Source of the DNA: Kiloniellaceae bacterium
GTDB lineage: Bacteria; Pseudomonadota; Alphaproteobacteria; Kiloniellales; J153
Assembly (NCBI GenBank): GCA_021776095.1
Contig: JAJFGO010000038.1
Span: 1-64,000 of the forward strand
Reading direction: 5' to 3'
Length of the DNA stretch: 64,000 nucleotides
Part shown: piece after piece, positions 134-19,664 of the stretch
Position numbering within the stretch: position 1 is the stretch's first letter
Layout of the letters: every line of letters begins with the position of its first letter
Program-made: the position numbers and the translations under genes
The notes under the pieces: model-generated
The model's input: the letters and a program-made list of their open reading frames with translations, nothing else
The model's database searches: none
Told to the model about the DNA's origin: nothing

Positions 134-177
134 AATTTCAAAGGGTTAGACTCCTCTCAAACCATTCACATCGGTTC

Positions 178-198
178 CAGGTACCACATAGGTACCAA
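178..198 (+). promoter_or_regulatory. Island end repeat, left copy (GGTACC pair)
   Basis: GGTACCACATAGGTACCAA lies here, 45 bp inside attL. A copy with one mismatch lies at 17362-17382, inside attR and just upstream of the integrase gene. Each contains two GGTACC hexamers 11 bp apart. Direct copies flanking both att sites suggest arm-type recombinase or excisionase sites; that role is inferred. Confidence 0.5.
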
Positions 199-463
199 GT
201 GAATTGGATTGGCGGTGCGCAAAATCGCACATGGGGGTAACCCGTGCCGTCGCCACAACTGGGCCTGAGACACGGCGCTGCGCCGCACCTCAAATTTCCA
301 ATAGCTCGTGAGCGCCCATCAGTCTCTCAATTAACGTGGCTTGGCGCGCGCCCCGCCCCCCCCCTTTGGCCCTTCCGTTGTCTTTCAAATCCGATCTGAG
401 AAAAAACCTGAAATTCGATGCCCTAGTGGATGGGCATTCCAGCTGGGCGGCCGGCCAAACATC

Positions 464-480
464 GTGCCAAATTTTGGCAC
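464..480. promoter_or_regulatory. Palindromic operator upstream of the R-M operon
   Basis: GTGCCAAATTTTGGCAC is a perfect 8+1+8 dyad, 189 bp before the first methyltransferase ATG. The 15-bp core TGCCAAATTTTGGCA recurs at 9587-9601, about 190 bp before the AlpA-like gene of the replication operon. A shared dyad in two island control regions suggests one island-encoded repressor or activator. The protein that binds it is unknown. Confidence 0.55.
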
Positions 481-668
481 AACATGATGATCGGTTCGGC
501 TTTCCTATTCCCAATAGGTTGACCCGACTCCGCAACTGCGATGTATTTTGACCTCCCCCGAGTTACTAACCACGGAGGCACATTTGTTCATCAGGTCGAG
601 TGCACCAAGTCGCCGATTCATGTTCCACCTTGAGATTGTTGGGGTAACGCACGAAAATTGTTGGTTGT

Positions 669-2066: not shown

Positions 2067-2084
2067 CCGATTAGGTCCAAATCT

Positions 2085-3428: not shown

Positions 3429-3456
3429 CTGAAATTGATGAAAGAGGGGCGAAACC

Positions 3457-5202: not shown

Positions 5203-5332
5203 TGTTTGCGATAGGCTCCAGATCTTGTAATATTTTATTTATATTTGTGCATCGTTTGTTTAATTTCGAATAAATATCAGTAATTTAGATAATAAAAACC
5301 TGAATGTGCGAGCAGTCCAGGTAAATTATTTA

Positions 5333-6619
5333 ATGAAGCAAGTTATAACACTAAACATGCGAGCCACGGTTGACGTTCCACAAGAGGATGTCATCGGAGA
5401 AAATGGTCTGGATATTTATCCTTGGGTGGAGAAGAGGGGCTTCTTCTCATTTCAGTTACGAGGGGGCGTATTAAAATTATCGGCCGGAGCGTATGTAGGT
5501 CTCATTCCTCTTAATGATAAAATTACGATCGACGTTAGACCTAGGATTAGTCCATCGAATTATGGTCGGGTTTTAGACGTCTCTCAACAACGCTTAACAC
5601 AGATCGAACGCTATAACCGGCAGTTTGACAGCGGTGCAGAGGGAGAAAGTAGTTTTGATTTTTTAGTTAGAAACTTCCTAAGCTCACTTCATGAGCTTAG
5701 TCTCCATGGGCGTTATAAGACCTATCGTACAACTCACAAGACCACAGATTCGCCCCGTGGAAGAATCGACATTCAGAGGACGCTCACTCAATGCTATTCA
5801 AAGGGTATGCAGCATCGCGTATGCGTTGAATGGTTTGAGCATACGGAGAACAATCCGTTTAACCGTGTTCTAAAAGCGGCTCTCACAGCAATTTATGAGC
5901 GATATCGACGAAATTATTTGGGTTCGTCGGTTTTGCGTACTGAGCTTTCCCGGTATTTGTTGGAATGGGAGTCTATTCCAACGTCGGATATTGTAAGAGA
6001 CGCTCGAATGGTTGCCGAGATGCTCCGACGAGGTGCTCTGCCTGCATCAAGGCTATATTATACAAGATCTCTGGCTATATCGCTATTTATACTAAATAGA
6101 AATGCATTGTCACTAGAAGAAGTGGGTTCAGATATTGAGCTTTCTGGATTCATTATTGATTTCGAATCTGTATTCGAAGCTTATGTTTTGCAACTTCTGA
6201 AAGCAAATATTGCAGGTTCAGATTTTCACGTTGGCGATGGAAATCGTGAGAGCGGTAAACCTCTTTTCGAAGATCAGGAAAGGCCACGAGCTAATCCCGA
6301 TATTGTTATTTCCAAGAAAGAGGGGGAAATTTCTTTGATTGTTGAAGTCAAATATAAACCCAAGTTCAATCGGGCCGACTTAAATCAAGTGATCACATAC
6401 GCGCTATCCTATAAGAGCAATGACGCCTTGATTGTCCACGGGAGTGAGAAGCCCGATAATGTTCGTTATGAAGGCCTTATAGGGGGGATACGGATCTGGT
6501 CATGTGGTATTGCACTAGGGCTGGATGATTTATTGCAGGAAGAACAAAGATTCATCGATCTAACAAGAGATCTAATTTTTCATCCTGAAAAAAATTCTTA
6601 TCTCATCGAGGCCGATTGA
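5333..6619 (+). CDS. McrC-like PD-(D/E)XK nuclease subunit
   Basis: This protein of about 428 residues has the McrC layout: a beta-rich N-terminal region that contacts the McrB ring, a helical middle, and a C-terminal PD-(D/E)XK nuclease core visible as NPDIVI followed by VEVKYK. The ATG at 5333 (MKQVITLN) has AGG about 10 nt upstream; a GTG at 5306 would add nine residues. The gene lies 130 bp after the McrB-like gene. McrC both stimulates McrB NTPase and cuts DNA, so this is the effector. It is AT-rich like the rest of the operon. Confidence 0.9.
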   Translation: MKQVITLNMRATVDVPQEDVIGENGLDIYPWVEKRGFFSFQLRGGVLKLSAGAYVGLIPLNDKITIDVRPRISPSNYGRVLDVSQQRLTQIERYNRQFDSGAEGESSFDFLVRNFLSSLHELSLHGRYKTYRTTHKTTDSPRGRIDIQRTLTQCYSKGMQHRVCVEWFEHTENNPFNRVLKAALTAIYERYRRNYLGSSVLRTELSRYLLEWESIPTSDIVRDARMVAEMLRRGALPASRLYYTRSLAISLFILNRNALSLEEVGSDIELSGFIIDFESVFEAYVLQLLKANIAGSDFHVGDGNRESGKPLFEDQERPRANPDIVISKKEGEISLIVEVKYKPKFNRADLNQVITYALSYKSNDALIVHGSEKPDNVRYEGLIGGIRIWSCGIALGLDDLLQEEQRFIDLTRDLIFHPEKNSYLIEAD

Positions 6620-6939
6620 AGGGAGTTTCAAAATTTGTAACATATTGGTTTGAGGTCACGTTTTTCTAGAAAACGATGGTTATGGGCCCTGGCGACCCGT
6701 ATACCGATACAAGTTTATTGCTATAACCCAGTGCCCAGTTTTGCCCTGATCGGCTCAGCAATTTTTCAAGGGGCTAGGTGGTTTGTCAACGGCGGTGTAA
6801 AAACCGACCAGGTGGCGGCGGCTATTCGGCATTATTGGAGCATGGCCTCGTAAATGTATTTGGTCAGATCTGAGTGACATCTGATGGTGTGTCGAAAATT
6901 CTTTTGTTGAACAAGAAAAAAATGGAAAAAAAACGGAAT
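6620..6939. other. Gene-free gap after the R-M operon
   Basis: This 320-bp stretch lies between the converging McrC-like gene and the small minus-strand genes. Short reading frames exist but have no ribosome site or recognisable family. I see no clear terminator hairpin or insertion-sequence end. Confidence 0.4.
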
Positions 6940-7269
6940 TTACCAGGATGCATTGCGCCTTTGTTTGCGCGGCCAAGTTGGAAGAGTCGAGGCTTCGCCT
7001 CGATCCATAGGAACTGGTCGAATTGATGAAATGGCATCATCAACCGGAGGCACTCTCGCATTGCGAATGATGCAGAGATCGGCATCGACCAATCGGAAGG
7101 AGAGGCAGTCGTAGGCGCAGCAGAATTCCTTTCGACGTAGGCTTTCCCTTAACCGATAAAGCTGTGCGCGAACTCGGCCAGAGATTTCCCAATCTTTGAA
7201 GGGCAGGCGCAAGCCATGTTCAGCTACGAGGGCTTGGTCGAGGATTGATCTGTAATCGTCCCGCGTCAT
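6940..7269 (-). CDS. Small island protein of unknown function
   Basis: This predicted 109-residue protein starts MTRDDYRSILDQAL and has an arginine- and leucine-rich helical first half. The start is fixed by a 4-bp ATGA overlap with the stop of the upstream 74-residue gene, which implies translational coupling. A longer reading frame exists upstream of this ATG but would overlap the neighbour extensively. It is the last gene of the minus-strand set with the SF3 helicase and AlpA-like protein. I recognise no domain; position suggests a replication or mobilisation accessory. Confidence 0.6.
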   Translation of the reverse strand: MTRDDYRSILDQALVAEHGLRLPFKDWEISGRVRAQLYRLRESLRRKEFCCAYDCLSFRLVDADLCIIRNARVPPVDDAISSIRPVPMDRGEASTLPTWPRKQRRNASW

Positions 7270-7490
7270 GGTGATCTCCGCTCCGCCTCCATGCGTGAGA
7301 TGGCCTTCGCGATGACCTTCTGTGCCGCTGTTAGATCGCGCACAATGAAGGCCTCCCACTCTCGCGGTTGACCGGGGAGTTTTCTGCGTCTCTGGACAAA
7401 GAGCTGATCGCCACTCGGCAACTGACCAAACAGGACTCCTGGGCCAGATACTTTATCTTCGATCAGGCGGCAGAGACGTTCAATTGGCAT
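7266..7490 (-). CDS. Small island protein of unknown function (74 aa)
   Basis: The protein begins MPIERLCRLIEDKV and contains a basic central stretch (QRRRKLPGQPREWEAFIV) followed by an amphipathic C-terminal helix. It overlaps the next gene by ATGA. No ribosome site is obvious before its ATG. It lies downstream of the SF3 helicase gene, separated by the repeat-rich gap 7491-7800. No family recognised. Confidence 0.55.
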   Translation of the reverse strand: MPIERLCRLIEDKVSGPGVLFGQLPSGDQLFVQRRRKLPGQPREWEAFIVRDLTAAQKVIAKAISRMEAERRSP

Positions 7491-7800
7491 TGGGTGTGCC
7501 CCTGATAATCCGGTTGGGGATTTGGGTTGATGTCAATTTATCCGGGCATTGGGGGTGGGTTGGTTCCCATGGGCAATCCCCATGGGCATTTGCCCGGATG
7601 GCCACCTACGGCACCCACAGGCCGGTTATGGGGCATTATGGCAGGCGACCATGGGTTGGGCATATACCCGCCCGGATGATTTCCACCACCATCCCAATGG
7701 GAGGATTGGGAGCTATTTTCATACCTAATTGCCGGATATTTTTTTGAAATGTATTGGTTAATGGGGCAGCCCATCATAATCCTCCCAAACCTCCCGCCCA
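7491..7800. repeat. Repeat-rich noncoding gap, candidate replication origin
   Basis: There is no convincing gene here. The octamer GCCCGGAT occurs at 7592-7599 and 7670-7677 and in inverse orientation at 7540-7547, with an imperfect fourth copy near 7731. The palindromic 10-mer CCCATGGGCA is repeated at 7566-7575 and 7579-7588. Several more CCCAT/ATGGG units follow. An AT-rich patch (about 7715-7760) lies next to the helicase gene. Iteron-like repeats plus an AT-rich patch beside an SF3 helicase fit a P4-like origin. This is inference. Confidence 0.4.
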
Positions 7801-9147
7801 TCACGGTGGATTTTGAAACTGGACCCCAATCCAGTACATTGTGCTCGATTTCGCTATTGAGAAGCCAAGGACTTCTAGAGAAGACCGGAGTGCTCGCTCC
7901 GAAGATGGAATAGGTAAGTTTGAATTAGCGCAGAACTCACAACAGCGCGTGAACATATCAGCGGCTGAGATCCGGTCTTTTGGCTGTCCAGTTCGGACCA
8001 GGTGCGTTTCTGCAAAAACCTTTGCAGGATTGGATCTGTGTAACCAGGAACGCGTTGCATGGCGCACCGTGGCAGGGCGGGCGATGCTGCCTCGTTTCAG
8101 CACACGCTGGAAACCCTCAACGGCGCGGCGGAGCAGTCCTTGACCACCGCGTTCAAATACCTCTTCAGCCAGTTTTGGGTTTCTCTTTTCAGGCGGAACA
8201 GTGCGTGTGAATGGCACAACAAGCATACGGCGTCGGATCGCTTCGCCAGTCTCAGGTAGTGGCGGCAAATGGTTTGTTGAGAACACGTGCAAAGCGATGG
8301 GTTTGATCTTGAATCCGGTTTCGCCGACCCGCCGAACTGTTGTCGTGTCGCCTGCACAAATGCTCTTGAGCATCTCCATATGCCTCCCTTGGAGTGGTGG
8401 AAGCTCGCCGACAGAATTGAACCGCGATCCGGCCAAGTGAACACGATGGAAGTCATACAGCCATTCTGAAGGTGATACAGAGGACCGCATGTTTTCAGGA
8501 ATCAGCTGCTCAATGAGTTTGGTGGTGACCCCCTTGCCGTTTGCTCCTGTTCCATAGAAGATAATTAGAGTTTGGAAACGATCACCATATCCAAACAATG
8601 CCACCCCAGTGACCTCGTAAATTAAATCTACCAGTGACTGATCCGCGAAAGTTTCACGAAGAAAATTATCACAGTCGTTGGTATCGGAAGTTGGATCATA
8701 GTTGATATCCAAACGTGCCCTTTGTCTCTGATCGACCCTGTGTGGCTTCAAGGTCAACTGATCGCCTTCGATAGTGAGAAATCCGTTTGCAACCGATATC
8801 CCTTCTGGTGGCGAAAAAAAGTACCCAGGGTTACTCAGACGGCGCTTGATGGCTCGCAAAACAGAGTTCGCACGTGTTTCCGAAATCTTGAGTCGGCCAT
8901 TAGGCGTCCGTGTGCCATCTAGGTCGAAAATGAAATTAACAACCACCGCGTCATCCAGAAGTACGAATATTCCTTCATTGGGCTCATATTGCCAAAGCCT
9001 CTGTTCGTCGAACACGATCAGTCGGCCATGCTTCTCTAAGTGAGGGATGATCGCATCTGCCAACTCGACATCTGAGATACCTTGGCGTTGCTGCAACAGC
9101 TGCTTCAAACGTGTAGGAGCATTCTTCTTCGGCACATGGCGTGGCAT
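7801..9147 (-). CDS. D5/P4-type SF3 helicase (phage/plasmid primase C-terminal family)
   Basis: This 448-residue protein has a D5_N-like region (about 90-190) followed by a superfamily 3 helicase core. Walker A is GTGANGKG at 199-206, and the sensor-like FSTNHLPPLPETGEAIRRR with the arginine finger lies later. This family unwinds the origin of phage P4-like satellites and plasmids. No archaeo-eukaryotic primase domain is visible in the first 90 residues, so it may be helicase only, with priming by a host or other protein. It lies 42 bp after the AlpA-like gene and upstream of two small genes on the same strand. Confidence 0.88.
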   Translation of the reverse strand: MPRHVPKKNAPTRLKQLLQQRQGISDVELADAIIPHLEKHGRLIVFDEQRLWQYEPNEGIFVLLDDAVVVNFIFDLDGTRTPNGRLKISETRANSVLRAIKRRLSNPGYFFSPPEGISVANGFLTIEGDQLTLKPHRVDQRQRARLDINYDPTSDTNDCDNFLRETFADQSLVDLIYEVTGVALFGYGDRFQTLIIFYGTGANGKGVTTKLIEQLIPENMRSSVSPSEWLYDFHRVHLAGSRFNSVGELPPLQGRHMEMLKSICAGDTTTVRRVGETGFKIKPIALHVFSTNHLPPLPETGEAIRRRMLVVPFTRTVPPEKRNPKLAEEVFERGGQGLLRRAVEGFQRVLKRGSIARPATVRHATRSWLHRSNPAKVFAETHLVRTGQPKDRISAADMFTRCCEFCANSNLPIPSSERALRSSLEVLGFSIAKSSTMYWIGVQFQNPP

Positions 9148-9189
9148 TGCGATTAAGCGCCTTCCGGGTCAGAGGAGAGGCGATGGTGT

Positions 9190-9396
9190 TCAACTGTTTG
9201 GCACTGGTTCTGTCGTAGACTCACGAGCGGCATCTTCTACGTACTTTGCCAAGTCAGACTTTTTGTATCGAACTGCGCCTCCAATCTTTCGGTAGGTTGG
9301 CCCTTCTCCGGCCCAACGCCAACGAGAGAGGGTTTTCGGCTTCAATCGGAGAAATTCGGCGGCTTCTGACTCGGTCAGGAGTTGTGATTCAACCAT
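9190..9396 (-). CDS. AlpA/MerR-like helix-turn-helix regulator or excisionase
   Basis: This 68-residue protein starting MVESQLLTESEAAEFL has the DNA-binding winged helix of the AlpA/Xis class: a LTESEAAEFLRLKPKTLSRW helix pair, then GPTYRKIGGAVRYKKSDL. The ATG at 9396 has GGAG 8 nt upstream; a longer frame from 9468 lacks such support. In P4-like elements AlpA-type proteins activate or act as excisionase for the integrase. It heads the helicase operon. A pair of CCAATGG repeats (9442-9448, 9458-9464) lies 46-68 bp upstream. Confidence 0.85.
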   Translation of the reverse strand: MVESQLLTESEAAEFLRLKPKTLSRWRWAGEGPTYRKIGGAVRYKKSDLAKYVEDAARESTTEPVPNS

Positions 9397-9666
9397 GAGA
9401 AATACTCCGCGTTTTGGATCAATCAATTTGAACAAATAACGCCAATGGCCCAAATTACCAATGGACATAAATTGGAATTATTTTGACTATTTTTTGTCCA
9501 CCGAAAGTTACGCATGGGTGCGCACAGTTATTTAGTTTGCGGATTTACTTGTTGGCGGAGTTCGTGTTCGAAAACGCGGAAGATCATGCCAAATTTTGGC
9601 ACCACTAGAACGCTTCAAGCATCTTGGAAAAAACTGGCTACTTAGGCTGCGCGCACTAGTTTCGGA
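9397..9666. promoter_or_regulatory. Control region of the replication operon with shared operator
   Basis: This 270-bp gap holds the dyad TGCCAAATTTTGGCA (9587-9601), identical to the one at 465-479 upstream of the restriction-modification operon. It also has two direct CCAATGG repeats 16 bp apart nearer the AlpA-like start. It presumably contains the promoter firing leftward into AlpA and the helicase. Exact -35/-10 boxes are not clear. Confidence 0.5.
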
Positions 9667-10380
9667 TTATCCACCTGCTGTAGGCAATGTCTCCAAAGCA
9701 CGCTGCACCCTCTTTCCAAGAGCGTTCTTGGACTGAATGTGCATGAGTGGTTGTGCACAGAGCTCAACAAATTCAAGAAATTGACCGCTGTAGGTCTGGG
9801 CTGTCGCGCTGTACGAAACAGTGGCCCTTTGGCCAGCCTTTGCCTCATAGAGGCGTGCAAGCATCCACACGAAAGCGGTAAACGCGATCACTTGAGGACG
9901 TCCTCGCGCCGGTTTAGGGAGTTGGTCGAGTGTCGTTGAGATGACATCGATTAGATTGTGAAGATGCTGAACCGCGAAATCGATCTCCGAATCGCCCTTG
10001 GAAAAGGTATTGGCAGCTTGACCAAACTTGGCTTCCGTTGGTGTCAGGATACTCCCCGACGCGCATAGGGCCAGCCGAATGGCCGTTTCATCATCGAGAT
10101 CCTCCAACCGATCTAAAAGCTTCTCGCCCGCTTCCAATATTTCTATCAGTGCCGCCTTTTGCTCCGCAGGTTTCGGTGCTTGATCAAATGAATGCTTCAT
10201 TCCAAGATAGCGCGCTGCTATGTCTTCAATTTCTGCTTTTATGGCGGTGATATGGGCTTCGCCTCGCGCGACCAAGATATCAACAATCCGCTCCATCGCC
10301 TCAGCTGGATAGGGCGGCACATCGATCTCGGAAAGCTCTGTTATGCGCCACCTTCGGCGCGGCTGTCTTTGACGCGGCAT
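9667..10380 (-). CDS. Conserved-looking island protein of unknown function
   Basis: This 237-residue protein has a basic N-terminus (MPRQRQPRRRW). A helical acidic middle follows, then a C-terminal block with VIAFTAFVWMLARLYEAKAG and a YSGQFLEFVELC segment. I do not recognise a domain. Its position, upstream of the AlpA-helicase operon on the same strand, suggests a mobile-element core function rather than cargo. Composition is closer to the chromosomal style than the restriction-modification operon. The promoter must lie in 10381-10682. Confidence 0.7.
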   Translation of the reverse strand: MPRQRQPRRRWRITELSEIDVPPYPAEAMERIVDILVARGEAHITAIKAEIEDIAARYLGMKHSFDQAPKPAEQKAALIEILEAGEKLLDRLEDLDDETAIRLALCASGSILTPTEAKFGQAANTFSKGDSEIDFAVQHLHNLIDVISTTLDQLPKPARGRPQVIAFTAFVWMLARLYEAKAGQRATVSYSATAQTYSGQFLEFVELCAQPLMHIQSKNALGKRVQRALETLPTAGG

Positions 10381-10682
10381 TTGCAGGTCACCTTATGTAG
10401 CGACACCGAATCCTGACGACGGCGAAATCAAAGCGTCTTGGCCTCATTCGATTGGTCCAGAAATTTCCGCTTTCTGGTTAACCGCCCTTTTCGCTGTGAA
10501 TTGTACAGCATCTGGTTGCCAACCCAATCTGGACATTAGGGTTGTCGCCTTCCGCTTTCATCCTGAAATCTGGCGGTGAATGTCGGTGCCAGATAAGTCT
10601 GCCCAGACCCTGGGCCGATATTGGCCTCGCCAGAAGTTATAATGTATAAGTCACTGACAGCGCTGTCAGTTCATCTGGCCAA
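10381..10682. promoter_or_regulatory. Divergent promoter region with two inverted repeats
   Basis: This 302-bp gap separates the unknown minus-strand gene and the PD-(D/E)XK gene. It contains CCAGAAA-N7-TTTCTGG (10457-10477), a TATAAT box at 10638-10643, and directly after it the perfect 18-bp palindrome ACTGACAGCGCTGTCAGT (10653-10670). The palindrome overlaps the expected transcription start of the nuclease gene. Confidence 0.55.
10653..10670 (+). promoter_or_regulatory. Palindromic operator of the PD-(D/E)XK gene
   Basis: ACTGACAGCGCTGTCAGT is an exact dyad, 10 bp after a TATAAT -10 box and 12 bp before the ATG at 10683. A protein bound here would cover the start of transcription and the 5' end of the message, so tight repression is expected. 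The binding protein is unknown. Confidence 0.6.
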
Positions 10683-11975
10683 ATGATTGATACGCCAATG
10701 CGAAATGTATTTGATCAGTATTCTCAGCCTGAAAACCAAGTGACGCACGCGTTGATTACTTGCTTGGGCGAGGACCAAGGGCTGTTGCGGCGCTTCATAA
10801 GAGAGATCGCGGAGGTCAATCCACCCAAAGGACAGGCAATTGTCGTCCAAGAACAAGCCTTGCCTGGTGATCCAGATCTAACCGAGGAGGAAACGGAGGA
10901 ACGCGGGCTTCCTGATGCCGTCCTACATGACGGAGAGTCATGGTGCTTGGTCATCGAAAGCAAAGTAACCGCGCGCTCAAGCCTCGGCCAACTCCGGCGC
11001 CATCGTGCCACGATTGAGCGTCGTGGATTTTCTTCGATCCATCTTCTCCTGATCACAGCGACGCAAGCGACCGAGAAGGTTCGGGCCGAATGCCACACCA
11101 TTGGTTGGAGCGACATTTACGCTTGGCTGCGCGCTCAGCCACGGAATTCAAAGTGGGCGCATCGAGCGGCAGAGTATCTTGAGATTAAGGAAAGGCGGAT
11201 GATCGAGACCGAGAAACTGAAGGAGGGGGCGTTGACAAAATTTGCCGGCTTCGACTTTGGGGTTGATCGACCGTACAGCTATCTCGAAGCAAAGCGGACG
11301 CTGCGCCTCGCTATGGAGGAACTCCGGACCGTTACCAAGCTACAGACTCAACTTGAAGCGGATATTGGGGGAGAGGGACGCAAGGCAATTACCGGTCGCG
11401 AGGGGAGCAGCATATGGGACTTCATTCCACTTCAGGGATCGGATGGTGATCAGTTCACGCGTTATCCCCACCTCACGCTCTCAGTTGGATCGGAGCGCGT
11501 CTTCGCGCACATTACTATCCCGAATAGCATCAACACCCAGTTCCACAACAATCTTCTGGCCCTTGGAATCGAGCAGTTTTTTGAACTCCTTCACAGCGTC
11601 AACCAACGCCTACGCCCGGTGCTTCGAAAGGCGCCGGACGCAGCTCCTTGGTTCGTGGCGGTGCAACGCCGCTACCCATCGCAGCGCTCAATACCGATTA
11701 TAGATGCTTTACTCGAATTCGATCTGCGCACAGCAGTACGAGATGAGGCAAAAACCAAGCGTGGCGCGGCGAAGTCAATGCCAGAGTGGATGGAGGCCGC
11801 TTACTTGGCATGGGCCTCCAAGCGGACCACAGGTGCAAACTACCAGCTTGCAGTGGGAGCAATCTTTCCCTTCAGTCGTTGCCCGGCTATCCGCCAGCCA
11901 CAAGCGATCCAGTTGATTGCTGACACGTGGCTCGCTTGCAACCCCTTGCTATCCGCGATTTGCGGGAAAAGCTGA
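10683..11975 (+). CDS. Predicted PD-(D/E)XK nuclease, probable stand-alone defence protein
   Basis: This 430-residue protein has an N-terminal nuclease core: acidic D78 in LPDAVL, then E92 and K94 in the strand LVIESKV, the PD-(D/E)XK pattern. A basic helix (LGQLRRHRATIERRG) follows. The remaining roughly 280 residues are mixed alpha/beta with no domain I recognise. The closest style is the PDDEXK_4-like proteins of defence and mobile islands. No partner gene is adjacent. The ATG at 10683 lacks a good ribosome site, and M6 (10698) is possible. Expression appears controlled by the palindrome at 10653-10670, as expected for a toxic nuclease. Confidence 0.72.
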   Translation: MIDTPMRNVFDQYSQPENQVTHALITCLGEDQGLLRRFIREIAEVNPPKGQAIVVQEQALPGDPDLTEEETEERGLPDAVLHDGESWCLVIESKVTARSSLGQLRRHRATIERRGFSSIHLLLITATQATEKVRAECHTIGWSDIYAWLRAQPRNSKWAHRAAEYLEIKERRMIETEKLKEGALTKFAGFDFGVDRPYSYLEAKRTLRLAMEELRTVTKLQTQLEADIGGEGRKAITGREGSSIWDFIPLQGSDGDQFTRYPHLTLSVGSERVFAHITIPNSINTQFHNNLLALGIEQFFELLHSVNQRLRPVLRKAPDAAPWFVAVQRRYPSQRSIPIIDALLEFDLRTAVRDEAKTKRGAAKSMPEWMEAAYLAWASKRTTGANYQLAVGAIFPFSRCPAIRQPQAIQLIADTWLACNPLLSAICGKS

Positions 11976-12177
11976 CACAGGAGGCATCAATACTTCTCTA
12001 GCTGCGCACGTTGGGCCGGCTTTCGACCGGTCTACCTCAAAGATCGGACATGCCTGGGATTGACCCCTGAGGGCAAAGAATGATCCAATCCGGACGTTTT
12101 AGCATTGATGAAATCGGTCAGTAGATGTTTGTAAGCGGTTGCCTTCATGGTGATTGATTTTTCTGGGGCTCGAAATC

Positions 12178-13080
12178 ATGCATGTCAACTGGCCTGGAAC
12201 GAGGTGTGTGCTCTGTTTGAGTGAGGCCCCCCTGTCGAAGGAGCATCTGATTCCTGAAGCTCTCGGAGGCATTCTTACCTGCTCGTTTCTTTGCAGGACC
12301 TGCAATTCAACTCTAGGTGCCTCCTTTGAAGCCGAGGCGAGGGCTGATCCCTCTATTCGCATCGCTGCGCATAACCTTCAGTTGCAGATGCCTGAGTTGG
12401 CCCAAAGGCTTATTGAAGATCAGCGTTTTATCTCGGAAGGTCCGGGAGGAAACGAGCGAGGGATAGTTCGCGAGGGGAAATTTCGGGTTAAGTCACGAAC
12501 GGCGGAAGATGGTTCTCTTATTCAACCTACGGATCTTGCCCGGAAGTCGGTTGGAAAAATTCTGCGAATAGCTGGCGCCGGTGATACCCCAATTGCCGAA
12601 GCGCTGAAAAGATTGGAGGAGACTGGGGAGAACCTAAGGATGACATTGGCTCCGGGATTGGAAGCGGTGAAATGGAGCGTTAAAAAGCTGCAACTAGACC
12701 TCAGCCGCAGCAAGCTGATGAGTCCTCTTGTTCCACTGAAGATTGGTTATGAATTCCTCGCATGCCACTTGGGGTGCGCGATCTATGACGACGCCCCGCA
12801 AATGCGGGAGTTGCGGGCAGCTTTGCGAGGCACGCTAGAAGACGATTCGTATTTTTGGGTGGAACGGCTTAACGCCTCAGAATGTGAACCATTCCATGGC
12901 ATTTATTTTGAAGGGAACAGCCCATACGCGCGCGTACTCATCCGCCTCTTTGGGTGGCTTGCTTTTCGCGTGCATTTTCGACGGTTATCAGTTGCCGGTC
13001 CCAGATTCATTTACACGCACTATCTGGACACCAGCTGTGAGGATATCCGGATTCTGGAGTCGCAGTCCGGCGCGCTGTAA
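12178..13080 (+). CDS. HNH endonuclease-domain protein
   Basis: This predicted 300-residue protein has a compact HNH/zinc motif at its N-terminus: CVLC, then EHLIPEALGG (catalytic His), then CRTCNSTLG, i.e. two CxxC pairs around the histidine. The rest (about 250 residues) has no domain I recognise and may sense or bind a partner. ATG 12178 is preferred; a TTG at 12154 is in frame. It lies between the PD-(D/E)XK gene and the GmrSD-like gene with about 200-bp gaps on each side, so it is probably transcribed alone. The defence role is inferred from neighbours. Confidence 0.78.
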   Translation: MHVNWPGTRCVLCLSEAPLSKEHLIPEALGGILTCSFLCRTCNSTLGASFEAEARADPSIRIAAHNLQLQMPELAQRLIEDQRFISEGPGGNERGIVREGKFRVKSRTAEDGSLIQPTDLARKSVGKILRIAGAGDTPIAEALKRLEETGENLRMTLAPGLEAVKWSVKKLQLDLSRSKLMSPLVPLKIGYEFLACHLGCAIYDDAPQMRELRAALRGTLEDDSYFWVERLNASECEPFHGIYFEGNSPYARVLIRLFGWLAFRVHFRRLSVAGPRFIYTHYLDTSCEDIRILESQSGAL

Positions 13081-13291
13081 AAAAGCAAATGAGCCCATTC
13101 TACCTCGGAGAACTGACGCCGTTGGGTGAGGCCAGCTAATACCGAATTTGACCCGGAGCAGCCATTTGATGAATTTCTGGAGGCTCTGACCGTGAGCAAT
13201 TCCCTCGAATTACCAGTCGAAAGCAAAGCAACTAGGTTTGAATTCGAGATCTGGTGCGATTAATCGCGCTCATCGATACAAGGGTGACACA

Positions 13292-14995
13292 ATGGAATAC
13301 ATCCCGGTACGAGTTAGCGACATCATCCGACAGGTGAATCGTGACCTGTATCTTCCCGCGATACAGCGAGAATTGGTGTGGAAAACTGACAAAATTGAAC
13401 GTCTCTTCGACTCGATCATGGGCGATTTTCCCATCGGCTCATTCTTGTTCTGGAAGCTAGAGGAGAAGAACAAGGACGAGTGGCCGATTTATGAGTACAT
13501 TCGTGACTTTGATGAAGCATCGCCCCACAATCCGCTAGCAAACATGGCAGGAATCAACAGAGACATAAGGCTTGTCCTTGATGGCCAGCAGCGCATTACC
13601 GCACTTTTCATTGGATTACGTGGGTCTTACACCTACTTCTATTACCGATGGCTGAAAACTAAACTATATCTCAATCTCCTAAAGATTCCTGTGCTAGATG
13701 ATGAGAACCCCGAGGAACTGACTTATGAATTTGCGTTTCGTGAAAGTGACCAGCCATCTGGTGCTCTTCAAAAACTTTGGTATCCGGTCGGTCATATCCT
13801 AGATTTTCAAGACGCAGAAGACGCCAAGAGCGATATGAAGAAGCAACTGACATTGTTGTCGGAAGATCAGCAAGATAATGCCAACAGGCTTGTCGGACGC
13901 CTACACAGCCGCATTCATACCAACCTAGTTGGCAACTATTACGAAGAAAGGTCACAGGATTACGATAAGGTATTGCAGATTTTTGTGAGGGCAAACGCCG
14001 GGGGACAACCACTCGAATACTCTGACTTGCTCCTGGCTACGGCAACAGCCAAATGGGAAACGCTCGATGCGCGTAGTGAGATTCACGATTTTACAGATGC
14101 ACTCAACGAAACCGGTACGGGTTTCAAATTTGGCAAAGATTTTGTTCTAAAGGCGTGCCTGTATCTGTGCGAATCTCTCCCCATTCAATATAAGGTCAAA
14201 AACTTTTCTAGAAAGAATCTTCTAACTATAGAAGCGAATTGGGGTGCCATCAAAGAAGCGCTTGCAACCACTGTGCGTCTAATTTCACGCTTTGGGTTTC
14301 ATTCCAAGAATGTCGTGGCACCATTGGCACTGCTTCCAGTTGCCTTCTATTTGCTAAGGCGCGGCAATCGAAATTTTGACACATCGTCAAAAGCCGAAGA
14401 TGCCGAGGCACAGGTTGCTATTCGCAAATGGTTCGTATTTTCGACTCTCAAGAACGCTTTTGGTGGATCATCAGATACGACCCTGACTCGCCTCCGAGAG
14501 CTGCTAAAAGGTTGTGGTCCAGCGACCCCGTTTCCAGCGGATGAATTGTATAAGTCCCTTGAGATTGAGTCATCGCTAAATGATGACGAAATTGAACACA
14601 TCTTAGAATTTAAGTACCAAGGACGTTACACGAATTTGGTGCTGTCGCTCCTGTATCCTGACAGAGATTGGAAAGATGCGGTTTTCCATGAGGATCACAT
14701 TTTCCCGAAATCAGAGTTCAAGATTCGCTCTCTGAAAAGGCGGGGCTATGATGACACAAGAATCAAAAACTATATGTCTCATTTTGACACACTGCAGAAT
14801 CTCCAGCTGCTTACCGATTCTGAGAATATTTCCAAGAGCGCCACACCTTTCGACGACTGGATTCAATCGAGAGATCCTGAGTTTCGAGCCCGCCACCGAA
14901 TTCCTGACATGCAGGACTACGGATTTGATCACTTCGAAGAATTCTCGGTGGCCCGAAAAGACCAAATAATAGAAGTACTGAAATCACTTTCCTGA
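13292..14995 (+). CDS. GmrSD-like DUF262/DUF1524 restriction protein
   Basis: This 567-residue protein starts at the ATG after AAGGGTG. It has a DUF262 (ParB/Srx-fold) NTPase domain with signature DGQQRIT at 97-103. The C-terminal DUF1524 HNH nuclease has HEDHIFPKSEF from residue 466 and downstream asparagines in LQNLQLL. This is the single-chain GmrSD architecture. Characterised GmrSD enzymes use NTP to cut glucosylated hydroxymethylcytosine phage DNA, and related proteins include BrxU and SspE. Target specificity here is unknown. It is cargo of the island and apparently independent of the McrBC-type operon. Confidence 0.88.
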   Translation: MEYIPVRVSDIIRQVNRDLYLPAIQRELVWKTDKIERLFDSIMGDFPIGSFLFWKLEEKNKDEWPIYEYIRDFDEASPHNPLANMAGINRDIRLVLDGQQRITALFIGLRGSYTYFYYRWLKTKLYLNLLKIPVLDDENPEELTYEFAFRESDQPSGALQKLWYPVGHILDFQDAEDAKSDMKKQLTLLSEDQQDNANRLVGRLHSRIHTNLVGNYYEERSQDYDKVLQIFVRANAGGQPLEYSDLLLATATAKWETLDARSEIHDFTDALNETGTGFKFGKDFVLKACLYLCESLPIQYKVKNFSRKNLLTIEANWGAIKEALATTVRLISRFGFHSKNVVAPLALLPVAFYLLRRGNRNFDTSSKAEDAEAQVAIRKWFVFSTLKNAFGGSSDTTLTRLRELLKGCGPATPFPADELYKSLEIESSLNDDEIEHILEFKYQGRYTNLVLSLLYPDRDWKDAVFHEDHIFPKSEFKIRSLKRRGYDDTRIKNYMSHFDTLQNLQLLTDSENISKSATPFDDWIQSRDPEFRARHRIPDMQDYGFDHFEEFSVARKDQIIEVLKSLS

Positions 14996-15200
14996 CCAGG
15001 CAGAGTGTAGCCCGATTTTGACTATACGCCGACTAAGCAAACCGATCTGGAAAATACCCGGAAAGCGACGATCAGCTGAAACTCTGACGCCTGTTGTCAG
15101 AGCCGATTTGAGAGCTGCGGTATAAGCGCAGGCGCGATGTTGTCGAGCAAGTTATGTCAAAGGCGTATACGCAACCTATGGTCTCTTAACCGCCTCATCA

Positions 15201-15416
15201 TTACTTTGGAATGGGTTCTAAGAGGCGTGCTGGAGCCACACAAAGTGCGTTTGCCAACCGCTCAAGCACCAAGACCGTGGGGTTCCGCGCGCCCCTCTCA
15301 ATTCCACTGATGTAGGTCCGGTGCAGGCCCGACTCGAAGGCAAGTTCTTCCTGCGACCAGTCGCGTTCCCGCCTGATCCTCTGCACATTGAAACCCAGTT
15401 GCCTCCGGATATCCAT
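15201..15416 (-). CDS. Xre-family helix-turn-helix regulator
   Basis: This 71-residue protein, MDIRRQLGFNVQRIRRERDW onwards, is a single Xre/Cro HTH domain (WSQEELAFESGLHRTYISGIERG) with nothing else, the size of restriction-modification controller proteins and prophage repressors. ATG at 15416 is preferred over a TTG at 15428. It is divergent from the unknown gene at 15555. The dyad TGTAGAC-N5-GTCTACA lies 19 bp before its start and suggests autoregulation. It is a candidate regulator for other palindromes in the island, although their sequences differ from its own dyad. Confidence 0.88.
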   Translation of the reverse strand: MDIRRQLGFNVQRIRRERDWSQEELAFESGLHRTYISGIERGARNPTVLVLERLANALCVAPARLLEPIPK

Positions 15417-15435
15417 ATCTGGAAGCAAGCCGGGG

Positions 15436-15454
15436 TGTAGACGATCGGTCTACA
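15436..15454. promoter_or_regulatory. Inverted repeat, likely Xre operator
   Basis: TGTAGACGATCGGTCTACA has perfect 7-bp arms around a 5-bp centre. It lies in the 138-bp divergent region between the Xre gene and the unknown gene at 15555, placed to control both promoters. Confidence 0.55.
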
Positions 15455-15554
15455 GACGATGAGTAACAATTAGCTCTGAGGGTTGGCGGCGTTCTGATAT
15501 CCTTTCCTCTGACAAATGCATTGCACTGGCCGGACAGGAAAACAGGAGGGTTTG

Positions 15555-16091
15555 ATGGGGGCCAAACCGCAGAGCACGGCACCCCGCACTGTAAATCCGG
15601 CGTTTTTCCACGTAACCGTGTCAGAGGCGGTGTTTACAGGCGGTCTTGCTGCTGAAAATGGAGAAGGTGAGGAAAAACCATTTCATACCAAATCGTTGAG
15701 ACTAATCGGTAGAACAAATGATCGTATCGATCATCCTCAAATTCGTGATTTGTCGTGCGAAGTGGATTTCGTAATAGATAATATAAAGAGGTATCAAATA
15801 CAAAGCCCGCCAAGTTGCCCCATCATTGGGCAAGCACTTTATTCCAAATTCGCAGAAGGCGAAGGGTTTGCGGTATCAATACTTTGTACGTCTGAATATT
15901 TCGAACGGGTTAAAGACATTACCACGCTAATGGTATCTTCTATGGCGGGTGAGGCAGATCTCTCTATTGGGGTTTTGGATTTCCCACGGGACTGGAGGCC
16001 GGCAGATTCAAAACTAGGAAATTCGACCTTTTGGGTTACCTCGGTGGACTTGCAATGGAGAGCTGGGGTTGGTCAGCGCTACGCATCTTAA
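15555..16091 (+). CDS. Unknown island cargo protein
   Basis: This 178-residue protein, MGAKPQSTAPRTV onwards, has a mixed beta-rich composition, no membrane segment and no motif I recognise. Its start is well supported by AGGAGG 5 nt before the ATG at 15555; the longer frame from 15516 is not needed. It is divergent from the Xre gene across a dyad operator and ends 53 bp before the integrase stop, tail to tail. A defence or regulatory role would be guesswork. Content is moderately AT-rich. Confidence 0.72.
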   Translation: MGAKPQSTAPRTVNPAFFHVTVSEAVFTGGLAAENGEGEEKPFHTKSLRLIGRTNDRIDHPQIRDLSCEVDFVIDNIKRYQIQSPPSCPIIGQALYSKFAEGEGFAVSILCTSEYFERVKDITTLMVSSMAGEADLSIGVLDFPRDWRPADSKLGNSTFWVTSVDLQWRAGVGQRYAS

Positions 16092-16144
16092 AGTCACGCT
16101 CGAATTCGATAGCGGGCAGAGAAGGATTAAAACGTGGCTTTTTT

Positions 16145-17338
16145 TTACTGCCCTATACGGGAGAGTTTGCCCTGTGCCGGTTCCATTGCTGCCGCAATCC
16201 TCTTGCCCACAAGATCGTTCGCCTGTCTGAGCGGGTCTGCCGCAAGGTGGGCATAACGGGCTGTGGTTTGAGGTTGGGTGTGGCCAAGCAAGGCACCGAT
16301 AAGGGGCAGGCTCAACCCTCCCGCTGCTGCGACACTGGCGAATGAATGTCGGAGGTCGTGCAGGCGGACCCCATTCAAGCCTGCTTGTTCCCGAATGCGC
16401 ATCCAGGGTTTCGTGAGATTTACGAGATGTGTCGTGGGTTTTGCCCCCACTATAACATAAGGGTTGTCGTCAATACGTTCGAGATTTGCCAGAACATTGA
16501 GAGCGGGTGCAGAGAGGTGGATAGTTTTTGAACCTGTTTTGCTCTCCAGGAGCTGTAGGCAGCCCCGCTCAAAATCGACGCTGTCCCAACGAAGGGTTAG
16601 GATCTCAGATCTTCGACACCCGGTAAAAAGCAAAAGGCGGATAGCCGCAATTACGCTTGGCAATTCGATTCGCTCCGTTTCAGCTTCGGCTAAGGTTTTT
16701 CCAAGATTTGCAAGTTCTTCGTTCGATAGGAACCGCTCCCTACGGTTCTCCCGAAAGCGTTCAATGTGTCGGGCTGGGTTTGTGCCATCGGGGCGCAGAT
16801 CCCACTTCTCGGCCAAATTGAACATCTTTGATAGCAGGGCCAAACACCGGTTGGCGGAAATCGGCTTTTGGCGCATTGAGTGATGGAGATGGGCCACGTC
16901 GGCCCGCGTTACTGAGGCGACTTTCTTCCGGCCCAATGCAGGCAGGACATAAAGACGCAGTTGCCGTTCGTCTGCTTCGATGCTGGCAGGCCGTTTCTTG
17001 GCCCTGGCATGTTCCTCTATATATCTTTGAGCGAGTTGCCCGACAGTTGGCGCTCGTCGCGTCTCCAAAGCGGAGCCTGCAGGGTCACCGCCGTGCTTGG
17101 CCTCTGACAGCCATTTTAAAGCCCTGGTTCGCGCCTTTACGGTTGTTAAGGGCCCATGTTGGCCGATTGTGGCCTTACGTTGATGGCCGTCGCTTGTCCG
17201 GTACTTGAGAATGTAGACCCGTTTTCCGGAAGGCCAGACGCGAAGACCGAATCCGGGTAATTCTGTGTCCCACAGGATCAATTCGCGATCCGAGTTGGGC
17301 TGCGCGGCCTCAACGATCCGTTTGGTGAGTTTAGGCAT
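16145..17338 (-). CDS. Tyrosine recombinase integrase (P4-type, DUF4102 N-terminus)
   Basis: This 397-residue protein has an N-terminal DUF4102-type arm-binding domain (about 1-90), a core-binding domain (about 95-185) and the catalytic domain. The catalytic residues are visible: R242 (TGCRRSE), H327 and R330 (HDLRH), H353 (LGHTQ) and nucleophile Y362 (ARYAH). This class inserts islands into tRNA 3' ends, fitting the tRNA-Phe att repeats. The gene is read inward from attR. A GGTACC end repeat lies 24-44 bp upstream, where the promoter must be, so binding there could also control integrase expression. Confidence 0.95.
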   Translation of the reverse strand: MPKLTKRIVEAAQPNSDRELILWDTELPGFGLRVWPSGKRVYILKYRTSDGHQRKATIGQHGPLTTVKARTRALKWLSEAKHGGDPAGSALETRRAPTVGQLAQRYIEEHARAKKRPASIEADERQLRLYVLPALGRKKVASVTRADVAHLHHSMRQKPISANRCLALLSKMFNLAEKWDLRPDGTNPARHIERFRENRRERFLSNEELANLGKTLAEAETERIELPSVIAAIRLLLFTGCRRSEILTLRWDSVDFERGCLQLLESKTGSKTIHLSAPALNVLANLERIDDNPYVIVGAKPTTHLVNLTKPWMRIREQAGLNGVRLHDLRHSFASVAAAGGLSLPLIGALLGHTQPQTTARYAHLAADPLRQANDLVGKRIAAAMEPAQGKLSRIGQ

Positions 17339-17361
17339 TGCCTTCAGGACCTAATCGATTG

Positions 17362-17382
17362 CAGGTACCATATAGGTACCAA
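17362..17382. promoter_or_regulatory. Island end repeat, right copy (GGTACC pair)
   Basis: GGTACCATATAGGTACCAA differs by one base from the copy at 180-198. It sits between the integrase start and attR. See the left copy for the inferred role. Confidence 0.5.
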
Positions 17383-17510
17383 CATCCCGCAAATTTCAGC
17401 GATCTTCATCGCTACAGAGCGCAAAGTCGTATCTGGATAACTATCTATAAAATATACGATAATCTAGAAACTTCAAGAAGGCGAGATCTTTATCGTTCAA
17501 TCGAAGGCGA

Positions 17511-17559
17511 GACTGAAAATCACGGTGTCGGTGGTTCGATTCCGCCCCTGGGCACCATT
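17511..17559 (+). repeat. attR core: displaced 3' part of tRNA-Phe
   Basis: This is a 49-bp exact copy of 85-133. It lacks the acceptor 5' strand and D arm, so it is not a tRNA gene. The matching sequence continues imperfectly past the core (TTTCAAAGGGTTAGAC), here running into the hairpin at 17565-17594. Confidence 0.93.
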
Positions 17560-17658: not shown

Positions 17659-17666
17659 GGCCAACC
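17659..17666. repeat. Target-site duplication, left (GGCCAACC)
   Basis: This 8-bp direct repeat directly abuts the left inverted end of the IS1595-family element. The identical copy is at 19657-19664. Confidence 0.88.
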
Positions 17667-17725
17667 GGCGATTATCCCTTCTAGACAAGTAACCGAGTCG
17701 GGCGGGGAAAATTGGACCCTGCCTC

Positions 17726-18766
17726 ATGTTGGACCAACCCTTAGACAGTGCGTCGTATCGCGGATACGATCTCAAGCCTCGTGGGGAACACGTCTGGCAG
17801 GCTTGGGACGCGAATTTGCGTGTAAGTGAAAAGATACTCTCGTGTGTTGTGTTCATCGGGATTGATGAGCACGGCCCGTTCGTGCCGCTCGGAACGGGAT
17901 TTTTGGGATATGTCACGACCGATGGCTTTTTGTTCCAACAAATCGTTACTGCGCGACATGTTATTGAGCCTATAGAGGCGAAACGGATATGCATTCGTAT
18001 CAACACGCGAGATGGACGTGTGGAACACACGTACACGCTTAAGAGCGATTGGGAATTTCATCCAGACGAAAAAGTGGATATCGCAGTGTGCCCGTCACAC
18101 ACGCCGCCCGAGAGATATGACGTTGCCCATATCCATCTTGAGCGTGAATTAGTAACGCCGGAACTAATCACCGAGGAAACGATTGGTGTCGGCGATGATA
18201 TATTCATGGCGGGTATGTTCACGCGGCACCTAGGAGAACAGCGCAATCGGCCAATTGTCCGAACCGGAACAATAGCGGCGATGGCCGACGAAAAGGTTTC
18301 TACATCACGAGGAATGGTGGATGCATATCTGGTGGAAGCACGCTCAATCGCCGGATTGAGCGGTTCACCGGTCTTTGTTCATATGGCACCGTTAAGGGTT
18401 TTACCGGGCGGGCAGGTAAGCGCTAGTAAGGGCAGAATCCACTATTTTCTCGGAGTAATGCAGGGACATTATGTTACGAAAGACCCTACGGACGTTGCGT
18501 CGCCGGACGTTGAAGTTCCGGGCGACATGAGCACCGGGATAGGGGTAGTAGTCCCCGGCGAAAAGGTTTTGGAGGTCGTGAACTTGGACAAGTTTAAGAG
18601 CCAGCGCGAGGCGATTGTGGCGAAGAAAAAGGCTGAGACTGGATTTGTGGATGATTCCGCAAAACAGGAACCTCCCACCATGGACGAAAACCCACGGCAC
18701 AAAGAGGATTTCAATTCTCTGTTAGGCGCGGCAGTGCGAAAGCCTCGACAAGACGACCAAACATAG
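17726..18766 (+). CDS. Trypsin-like serine protease, IS passenger gene
   Basis: This 346-residue cytosolic protein (no signal peptide or membrane segment) has a chymotrypsin-fold catalytic triad: His78 in TARHVIEP, Asp118 in KVDIAVC and Ser212 in GLSGSPVF. The last roughly 60 residues are charged and probably disordered. The gene starts 59 bp inside the IS left end, and its 3' end overlaps the transposase 3' end by 56 bp on the opposite strand, so it belongs to the transposable unit. Stand-alone trypsin-like domains are common in defence and conflict systems, but no partner gene is adjacent. Function unknown. Confidence 0.82.
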   Translation: MLDQPLDSASYRGYDLKPRGEHVWQAWDANLRVSEKILSCVVFIGIDEHGPFVPLGTGFLGYVTTDGFLFQQIVTARHVIEPIEAKRICIRINTRDGRVEHTYTLKSDWEFHPDEKVDIAVCPSHTPPERYDVAHIHLERELVTPELITEETIGVGDDIFMAGMFTRHLGEQRNRPIVRTGTIAAMADEKVSTSRGMVDAYLVEARSIAGLSGSPVFVHMAPLRVLPGGQVSASKGRIHYFLGVMQGHYVTKDPTDVASPDVEVPGDMSTGIGVVVPGEKVLEVVNLDKFKSQREAIVAKKKAETGFVDDSAKQEPPTMDENPRHKEDFNSLLGAAVRKPRQDDQT

Positions 18767-19589
18767 CTCCCGGCTCTTTCCGCATGTTGTAGCGGAACGA
18801 AAATTCGCTGACGTACTTCCACAGATGATCGCTTGAGACGTGGACATGCGTGCCGCGAATGCTGTTCTTGAGACGCGACCAGTAGCCTTCAATCGTATTC
18901 GTGTGGATAGTCTCCCAAACGTATTCCTTAGCGCTGTGGTTGACCCGATAGTGTTGGTATGGGCCGTCTTTCTTGAGGCTGTCATAGCTTCGCAGTTCGT
19001 CGGTAATTAGGATGCTACCGCGCTGGACATTTTGCATGATGATAGGTTGCAAGGTTGACTTGCGGACGTTTGGAACGGGACCTGCGCGCACGATACCGTC
19101 ACGTTCGACCATGCCCATGACGACGGTTTTATTGTCGGGCTTGTGGGTACGCCGCCGTCCGCCGACGTAAGTTTCGTCGGCCTCGACCCAACCCGACAGC
19201 GGGCCATGATCGTCGGCTTGTGCCATTAGCTTCCTTAATTCGTGCGCCATACGCCATGCAGTTTTGTAAGTGCAGCCAATCTGGCGCTCCAGTTCCTTGG
19301 CGGCAACGCCGTGGCGCGTGCTGGTCATTAGGTACATGGCAAAGAACCAGACCGTTAATGGTGTGCGGGATTTCTCGAACGGAGTACCAACACACGGATA
19401 AACATGGTGGCCACAGTCCTGACAGGCATAGGCGCGCCGTTTCTTGATGCGATGGAATTTTGCTTCGGCTACGCCACAGCCGGGGCAAGAGAACGTGTGG
19501 CTGCCATAGCGGATTTCGAGGATGCGGTCCAAGCACGCATCGTTGTTAGGATATTCGGCTTGGAAGTCGCGAAACGTGTAGCGGGCCAT
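18711..19589 (-). CDS. IS1595-family (ISXO2-like) transposase
   Basis: This 292-residue protein has an N-terminal zinc ribbon (CPGC ... CQDC) and an ISXO2-type DDE domain: ADETYVGG (first Asp), ITDELRSYDSL (second Asp) and NTIEGYWSRLKNSIRG (the Glu/Asn region), followed by HLWKYVSEFSFRYN. It appears full length and intact. Its ATG at 19589 is 67 bp inside the right inverted end of the element. Confidence 0.95.
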   Translation of the reverse strand: MARYTFRDFQAEYPNNDACLDRILEIRYGSHTFSCPGCGVAEAKFHRIKKRRAYACQDCGHHVYPCVGTPFEKSRTPLTVWFFAMYLMTSTRHGVAAKELERQIGCTYKTAWRMAHELRKLMAQADDHGPLSGWVEADETYVGGRRRTHKPDNKTVVMGMVERDGIVRAGPVPNVRKSTLQPIIMQNVQRGSILITDELRSYDSLKKDGPYQHYRVNHSAKEYVWETIHTNTIEGYWSRLKNSIRGTHVHVSSDHLWKYVSEFSFRYNMRKEPGAMFGRLVEAFALPRLTEN

Positions 19590-19656
19590 TGGTTATATCC
19601 CCTCTGATACTTGTCATATGGGGAGTCCGCGTACTTGTTTCAAGGGGATAATCGCC

Positions 19657-19664
19657 GGCCAACC
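19657..19664. repeat. Target-site duplication, right (GGCCAACC)
   Basis: This is the identical partner of 17659-17666. An exact duplication implies a fairly recent single insertion of the whole 1,990-bp unit. Confidence 0.88.

What the first reader, a model, noticed from the sequence alone, without database searches (positions are those of the whole stretch)
17659..19664. Intact IS1595-family element with a trypsin-like protease passenger
Seen: 12-bp perfect inverted ends, exact 8-bp target duplication GGCCAACC, intact ISXO2-type transposase, and an intact protease gene wholly inside the ends, overlapping the transposase tail by 56 bp. A protease as a moving passenger is unusual and could be a defence or conflict effector spread by the IS.
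Basis: seen in the sequence. Interest (0 to 1): 0.65.

Follow-up and report, generated by a model that had tools for sequence, protein, structure and literature searches.

The report
Jumping gene carrying a swappable protease
A small bacterial jumping gene carries a gene for a trypsin-like protein-cutting enzyme; relatives show that such enzymes have been picked up more than once by this family of jumping genes and that its cargo can be exchanged, which suggests, without proof, that the enzyme is a mobile weapon or defence gene.

Summary
The protease is a real passenger. In the window's transposase clade 9 of 11 rows carry one (6 of 8 without the three that seeded the search), 8 of the 9 with both ends and duplication. 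Two complete elements from IS1595 subgroups 35-37% identical carry the same protease family. His-Asp-Ser is kept in 16 of 16 aligned sequences. Cargo is exchangeable: the window's transposase is sister to L042's, but their proteases are not (AU p=1.5e-9). Cargo is usual here: 20 of 21 elements with defined ends have an extra frame. A shared C-terminal tail corresponds to a conserved small ORF in distant elements. A defence role is plausible (PDC-S45; AbiV neighbour) but unproven; my control shows no general enrichment. New variant of a known kind.

The parts
17659..17666 (.). left target-site duplication GGCCAACC
17667..19656 (.). complete IS1595-family element, 1,990 bp
17667..17691 (+). left terminal inverted repeat (12 bp perfect, 21 of 25 extended)
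17726..18766 (+). passenger gene: trypsin-like serine protease, 346 aa, His78-Asp118-Ser212, PADLOC family PDC-S45
   Evidence: Pfam PF13365; PDC-S45 1.6e-24; triad kept in 16 of 16 aligned sequences, window included
18647..18766 (+). IS-linked C-terminal tail of the protease (about residues 308-346), also found on cargo of related elements and absent from the four non-IS homologues aligned
18711..18766 (.). 56-bp antisense overlap of protease and transposase genes
18711..19589 (-). IS1595-family (ISXO2-like) transposase, 292 aa
19632..19656 (-). right terminal inverted repeat
19657..19664 (.). right target-site duplication GGCCAACC

Best explanation
A complete cargo-carrying IS1595-family insertion sequence. 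The transposase acts on the two inverted ends and moves the whole 1,990-bp unit, making an 8-bp duplication (structure shown; activity inferred from intact parts and clean ends). The passenger is a catalytically conserved trypsin-like protease of the PDC-S45 family, with no visible signal peptide and so probably cytoplasmic (by inspection, no predictor run). It is one of many interchangeable cargoes on a common chassis: the transposase and a C-terminal tail stay together while the cargo domain in front of the tail is replaced (indicated by conflicting trees and by other cargoes with the same tail). Most likely role of the protease: a single-gene conflict or defence effector that cleaves an unknown target on infection or other stress, whose benefit to the host helps the IS persist (inferred, about 45%). 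The tail probably keeps cargo transcription and translation running antisense into the transposase 3' end and so damps transposition (inferred, about 25%).
For: Ends and duplications. Same layout (protease convergent with and overlapping the transposase) in 9 of the 11 rows of the transposase clade supported 98/93; 8 of the 9 with TIR and 8/8 TSD (none found for L047). Two more complete elements, L088 (2,258 bp, TSD AACATATT) and L089 (2,212 bp, TSD GAAGAAGG), carry the protease with IS1595 transposases (NCBIfam 1.4e-54 and 8.6e-61) 35-37% identical to the window's and to each other. His/Asp/Ser kept in 16 of 16 aligned sequences at roughly 27-38% identity to the window's. Cargo exchange: transposases of WIN and L042 are sisters (97/92), but their proteases as sisters are rejected (AU p 1.5e-9); the chassis-1 proteases as one clade are rejected (p 2.9e-5; p 2.0e-6). 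Same tail beside other cargo: L011, L055/L074. Family: PDC-S45 matched at E<=1e-4 by 13 of the 14 homologues scanned. Defence hints: homologue L086 is followed after 1 nt by HEPN_AbiV (3.6e-22); a homologue on an Acetobacter plasmid follows a methyltransferase/helicase/GIY-YIG locus.
Against: No partner effector or sensor lies inside the IS. PADLOC control: among 20 flanking window proteins, 9 models matched at E<=1e-4, each by one protein; among non-protease cargo 3 of 7 and, judging by the kinds of model, probably 2 of 13. So there is no clear enrichment of defence models in cargo. The window's weak LmuA and RT-Protease_XI matches (4.7e-6, 0.0012) are not specific: control proteins matched the same models better (5.1e-7, 1.6e-14). 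The Acetobacter homologue L081 itself does not reach PDC-S45 at 1e-4, and L088 matches LmuA slightly better than PDC-S45. No match in 50,697 phage records and one in 72,556 plasmid records. Three closer non-IS homologues have no telling neighbours (L084 at a contig end, L085, L087), nor have the distant L090-L092. Transposition, protease activity and the antisense control are untested. Long branches in the protease tree weaken its fine detail, and the pair WIN+L042 was named for the AU test after a first tree had been seen. The transposase search was seeded with three protease-linked elements (A1: window, L008, L010), which favours close kin of these.
Confidence: 0.6

Rival explanations
1. The protease is a neutral or generally useful (stress or quality-control) gene caught by chance when an IS end formed beyond it; it has no role in conflict.
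For: Cargo kinds are very diverse across the group; no clear PADLOC enrichment against the control; the fold search ranks HtrA/DegS-type proteases first, on a weak model (pLDDT 61).
Against: The same protease family is carried by three IS1595 subgroups, and two protease lineages occur within one of them, with the triad kept in 16 of 16: more than one chance capture. No signal peptide seen by inspection and no PDZ domain in Pfam, unlike HtrA/DegS.
Confidence: 0.3
2. The protease serves the IS itself, for example by trimming the transposase or host factors to control transposition.
For: Gene overlap and tail conservation tie cargo to the transposase.
Against: Among the 21 elements with defined ends only 8 carry the protease, and L035 (1,195 bp, complete ends) has no cargo but keeps the small ORF.
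Confidence: 0.07
3. The protease disarms host or rival defences (anti-defence), helping phages or plasmids that carry the IS.
For: Related elements lie in contigs with phage genes: head-tail adaptor (L074), terminases (L011), virion protein (L072), integrase (L053); of these L053 carries the protease and L072 part of one at a contig end.
Against: Of 12 IS-type protease loci seen, 9 are in bacterial contigs and 3 in viral contigs (L053, L054, L072); L011 and L074 carry other cargo.
Confidence: 0.15

Closest known systems
IS1595 family (ISXO2-like); IS with passenger genes ('tIS'), Siguier, Gagnevin and Chandler 2009 (seen only as a citation; the term tIS read in passages of PMC7986276)
   Same: Zn-ribbon + DDE_Tnp_IS1595 transposase, terminal inverted repeats, 8-bp duplication, a passenger gene inside the ends.
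   Different: Passenger is a trypsin-like protease, exchanged between lineages, with a tail related to a conserved small ORF; I saw no description of either in the listings (30 of 180 listed; none found; 20 of 46 listed).
PADLOC phage-defence candidate PDC-S45
   Same: Window protease matches at 1.6e-24 over residues 31-287; 12 of 13 other homologues scanned also match at E<=1e-4. A Sinorhizobium prophage carries a member (PMC12429752, passages read).
   Different: The family is a candidate only; here it has a tail and sits in an IS.
Trypsin-like protease + MBL nuclease modules of Hachiman, AVAST and Lamassu (PMC12799240; abstract, outline and passages read)
   Same: Trypsin-like proteases repeatedly acquired by unrelated systems; distant similarity to LmuA (4.7e-6; not specific).
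   Different: No nuclease partner, no fusion to a sensor; carried by transposons rather than within defence operons.
HtrA/DegS serine proteases
   Same: Best solved structures for the model: 1y8t and DegS.
   Different: No PDZ domain and no signal peptide seen; 14-18% identity in those structural matches.

Membership tests
IS1595 family | IS1595 DDE transposase with zinc ribbon | tested here: met
IS1595 family | terminal inverted repeats and 8-bp target duplication (family value recalled) | tested here: met
IS1595 family | placement in a named ISfinder subgroup | not testable with these tools
   no ISfinder sequences held; three transposase groups 35-37% identical were seen
IS carrying a passenger gene (tIS) | non-transposition gene wholly inside one pair of ends | tested here: met
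   protease 17726-18766 inside 17667-19656
trypsin-like serine protease (Trypsin_2, PF13365) | domain above curated cut-off and His-Asp-Ser triad | tested here: met
   34.8 bits against 27.6; triad alignment
trypsin-like serine protease (Trypsin_2, PF13365) | proteolytic activity | not testable with these tools
   needs purified protein
PDC-S45 | match to the PADLOC model | tested here: met
   1.6e-24, 84.4 bits; the tool gives no curated cut-off
anti-phage defence system | demonstrated protection | not testable with these tools
trypsin-MBL module | adjacent MBL-fold nuclease and fusion to a defence enzyme | tested here: not met
   Pfam finds only Trypsin_2 in the protease and the IS holds only it and the transposase; the nearest long genes outside are an integrase and an acyl-CoA-ligase-like gene

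The most novel reading that the evidence does not exclude
A large clade of IS1595 elements is a cargo platform on the scale of one gene: a fixed chassis (ends, transposase, and a conserved small ORF antisense to the transposase 3' end) onto which single conflict genes are swapped, either translationally coupled to the small ORF or fused to it, so that cargo expression and transposase control are tied together and single-gene defences hop between chromosomes, plasmids and phages.
Probability: 0.3. Interest if true: 0.8.

Novelty: new variant of a known kind. Interest (0 to 1): 0.52.

Why it matters
Insertion sequences are usually read as carrying nothing but their transposase. Here a whole group carries exchangeable single genes, and one protease family has been taken up by at least three IS1595 subgroups, with two distinct protease lineages within one of them. 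If those proteases defend against phages, this is a direct route by which single-gene defences spread, testable with a two-kilobase element. The conserved small ORF is missing from the gene tables of the two plasmid records examined and gives a handle for finding such elements.

Tried and rejected
Considered and rejected: chance repeats (exact TSD plus long TIR); pseudogene (triad kept, no stops). That the protease always travels with this transposase is contradicted by the tree conflict and by L055 and L011. 'Defence enrichment of all cargo' was tested with a control and not supported. A relative in annotated phages: none. Plasmid relatives: 1 record for the window protease, none for the L088 and L089 proteases at E<=1e-6. 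The solved-structure sequence search gave only marginal hits. The viral fold search gave RNA-virus serine proteases at low TM-scores and was not used. Empty site: the three congeners hold the downstream gene, but the sequence next to the insertion does not align, so it was not shown. Promoter scan: one weak match, inside the protease gene, no more than shuffles give. My label of L046 as degenerate was wrong: its protease frame is open with a GTG start; the tree is unaffected.

Rows dropped and biases. The transposase tree leaves out duplicates and fragments: L011, L037 and L048-L052 are fragments or partial matches; L011 carries other cargo, and the cargo of L049 could not be read. L057 is identical to L056. 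The seed alignment A1 was made of three protease-linked transposases. The profile searches used IS-borne proteases as seed; the single-sequence search is the less biased count. The class and phylum samples overlap. The partial protease L072 and the distant homologues L067-L069 and L090-L092 are not in the 16-row triad count. Many loci are metagenome bins, so host names (for example the Marinimicrobia bin of L044) may be wrong. Start codons of the small ORFs were chosen by eye; L024, L025, L015, L016 and L038 were not tabulated. For the profile comparison 18 of the 23 stand-alone small ORFs were used (L019, L021, L034, L035 and L041 left out). The pN/pS pairs were chosen by hand; pS is near saturation, and L058/L059 gave no codons. 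The control used 20 of the 26 long frames beyond position 20,000 listed. The E<=1e-30 cut in the text was chosen after seeing the hits. L015/L016 methylase labels rest on weak Pfam hits without found ends; L030's cargo assignment is unsure.

Full report
What is there. The element runs from 17667 to 19656 (1,990 bp) between two copies of GGCCAACC; its ends match perfectly for 12 bp and at 21 of 25 positions. On the minus strand lies a 292-aa transposase with the IS1595 zinc ribbon and DDE domain. On the plus strand, starting 59 bp inside the left end, lies a 346-aa trypsin-like protease (Trypsin_2; PDC-S45) whose last 56 bp overlap the transposase gene.

Is the protease a real passenger? In the transposase tree of 38 rows the window sits in a clade of 11 rows (98/93). 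Nine of these carry such a protease in the same convergent, overlapping place (window, L042, L043, L044, L045, L046, L047, L053, L054); one (L055) carries a SocA/Panacea-type gene and one (L056) no cargo that I recognised. This count is not free of selection: the window was the starting point, and L008 (=L042) and L010 (=L045) were first found with the protease and then seeded the transposase search A1. Without these three it is 6 of 8. Eight of the nine have both ends and an 8/8 target duplication; for L047 none was found. The loci come from bins named Alphaproteobacteria, Rhodospirillales, Rhodoferax, Proteobacteria and Marinimicrobia, and two from viral contigs.

Other IS1595 subgroups. Searching genomes with the protease profile gave 10 of 385 class genomes at E<=1e-8 and 6 of 378 phylum genomes at E<=1e-15. 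Two of the latter, L088 and L089, proved to be complete IS1595 elements (2,258 and 2,212 bp; TSDs AACATATT and GAAGAAGG). Their transposases match NCBIfam IS1595 at 1.4e-54 and 8.6e-61 and are 35-37% identical to the window's and to each other; their proteases are 28-31% identical to the window's. Of the nine genomes with a match at E<=1e-30, five are IS1595-borne with complete ends (four of eight without the window's own). With the single window protein as query, 7 of 385 genomes matched, 3 of them IS1595-borne, the window's own included. In 61 genomes of the order only the window's own matched.

Is it functional? The catalytic His, Asp and Ser are kept in 16 of 16 aligned sequences, IS-borne or not, at about 27-38% identity to the window's. 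That points to selection on activity. A predicted structure (pLDDT 61, pTM 0.62) resembles HtrA/DegS-type proteases; the model is too weak for more.

Cargo exchange. The window's transposase is sister to that of L042 (97/92; 73% identical), yet their proteases fall in two lineages split at 98/100, 96/100 and 100/100. Holding the two together is rejected (AU p 1.5e-9; the pair was chosen), as is one clade of the chassis-1 proteases (p 1.7e-4 with 8; 2.9e-5 with 9; 2.0e-6 with 9). L047 shows the same elsewhere in the tree: its transposase goes with L045/L054 (99/93), its protease with the window's lineage. Branches in the protease tree are long, so only the deep split is safe.

The tail. Eight IS-borne proteases aligned share a C-terminal segment with invariant H, E, F, L and A, and L046 has it too; the four non-IS homologues lack it. 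L011 and L055 have the same tail on a small ORF next to unrelated cargo. Its N-terminal part (x-N-P-x-H-x-E-D-F) lies upstream of the transposase stop, so the transposase sequence does not force it. In more distant elements the same place holds a small ORF, also antisense to the transposase 3' end; 24 small ORFs of 53-79 aa, L055 included, were tabulated. In 16 of the 21 with a known cargo stop, the start lies within -14 to +8 nt of that stop, which suggests coupled translation. Codons outside the overlap, summed over eight informative pairs of nine tried, show pN 0.33 against pS 0.74, so it is probably a real protein. Profile comparison joins the two small-ORF groups at 97% over 48 columns, and the fused tail to one of them at 92% over only 21 columns and to the other at 77%. 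Two small ORFs given to Pfam matched nothing. In two plasmid records (L082, L083) the ORF is present but absent from the distributed gene table; that table is known to be incomplete.

Other cargo. Of 43 distinct loci searched for ends (46 rows; L008, L010 and L057 are duplicates), 21 gave an 8/8 duplication with matching ends; 20 of the 21 hold a further open frame and one (L035) none (for L030 the assignment is unsure). Pfam recognised Peptidase_M78 (two), DUF7946/7947 (two) and SocA_Panacea among the 19 cargo proteins scanned; L015, without found ends, has Methylase_S and weak N6_Mtase matches. Most of the cargo scanned has no family.

Defence or not? For: PDC-S45 is matched by 13 of 14 protease homologues scanned. 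L086 is followed after 1 nt by an AbiV HEPN gene (3.6e-22), and an Acetobacter plasmid homologue (which itself does not reach PDC-S45 at 1e-4) follows a methyltransferase, helicase and GIY-YIG nuclease. Trypsin-like proteases work in Hachiman and AVAST (PMC12799240; abstract, outline and passages read). Against: the control of 20 flanking proteins matched 9 PADLOC models at E<=1e-4, one protein each, against 3 of 7 and probably 2 of 13 non-protease cargoes, so cargo as a whole is not clearly enriched; L084, L085, L087 and the distant L090-L092 have uninformative neighbours; and there is no partner gene in the IS. I hold defence or conflict at about 45%, anti-defence at about 15%, neutral or housekeeping at about 30%.

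Novelty. IS elements with passengers, and IS1595 as the family at the border of IS and transposon, are known (title of Siguier et al. 2009 seen as a citation; 'tIS' read in passages of PMC7986276). The listings of searches (33 and 92 capped) and passages of PMC7371123, PMC3281130, PMC12561309 and PMC11092175 showed no trypsin-like protease passenger and no such small ORF; the original IS1595 paper and one main IS review are not held, so this is weak negative evidence.

Noticed in passing
window 105-17557: A 17.4-kb island lies between tRNA-Phe (56-131) and an exact copy of its 3' end (17531-17557), with a tyrosine integrase (16145-17338), McrBC-like genes (3457-6619), a DNA methylase-like gene (669-2066) and a GmrSD/HEC-05-like gene (13238-14995). 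The IS sits about 100 bp outside it.
   Followed up: partly
G000 contig C94, L039 632-2420: A second IS1595 element in the same genome, 50% identical transposase with an in-frame TAG, TSD AACTCTTT, different cargo (235 aa) and a small ORF.
   Followed up: partly
L074, L011, L072, L053: Related cargo-bearing or broken elements sit in contigs with phage genes: head-tail adaptor, terminases, virion protein, integrase.
   Followed up: partly
L086 4351-5830: A non-IS protease homologue followed after 1 nt by a HEPN_AbiV gene: possible two-gene defence operon.
   Followed up: partly
L087 4026-7249: A protease homologue without tail about 1 kb from a convergent transposase of another kind (best NCBIfam model IS5-type, 2.9e-32, below its cut-off); no clean ends found.
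   Followed up: partly
L022 and L038: One genome (G435) holds two copies of an IS1595 element, with a 268-aa cargo, at different places.
   Followed up: no
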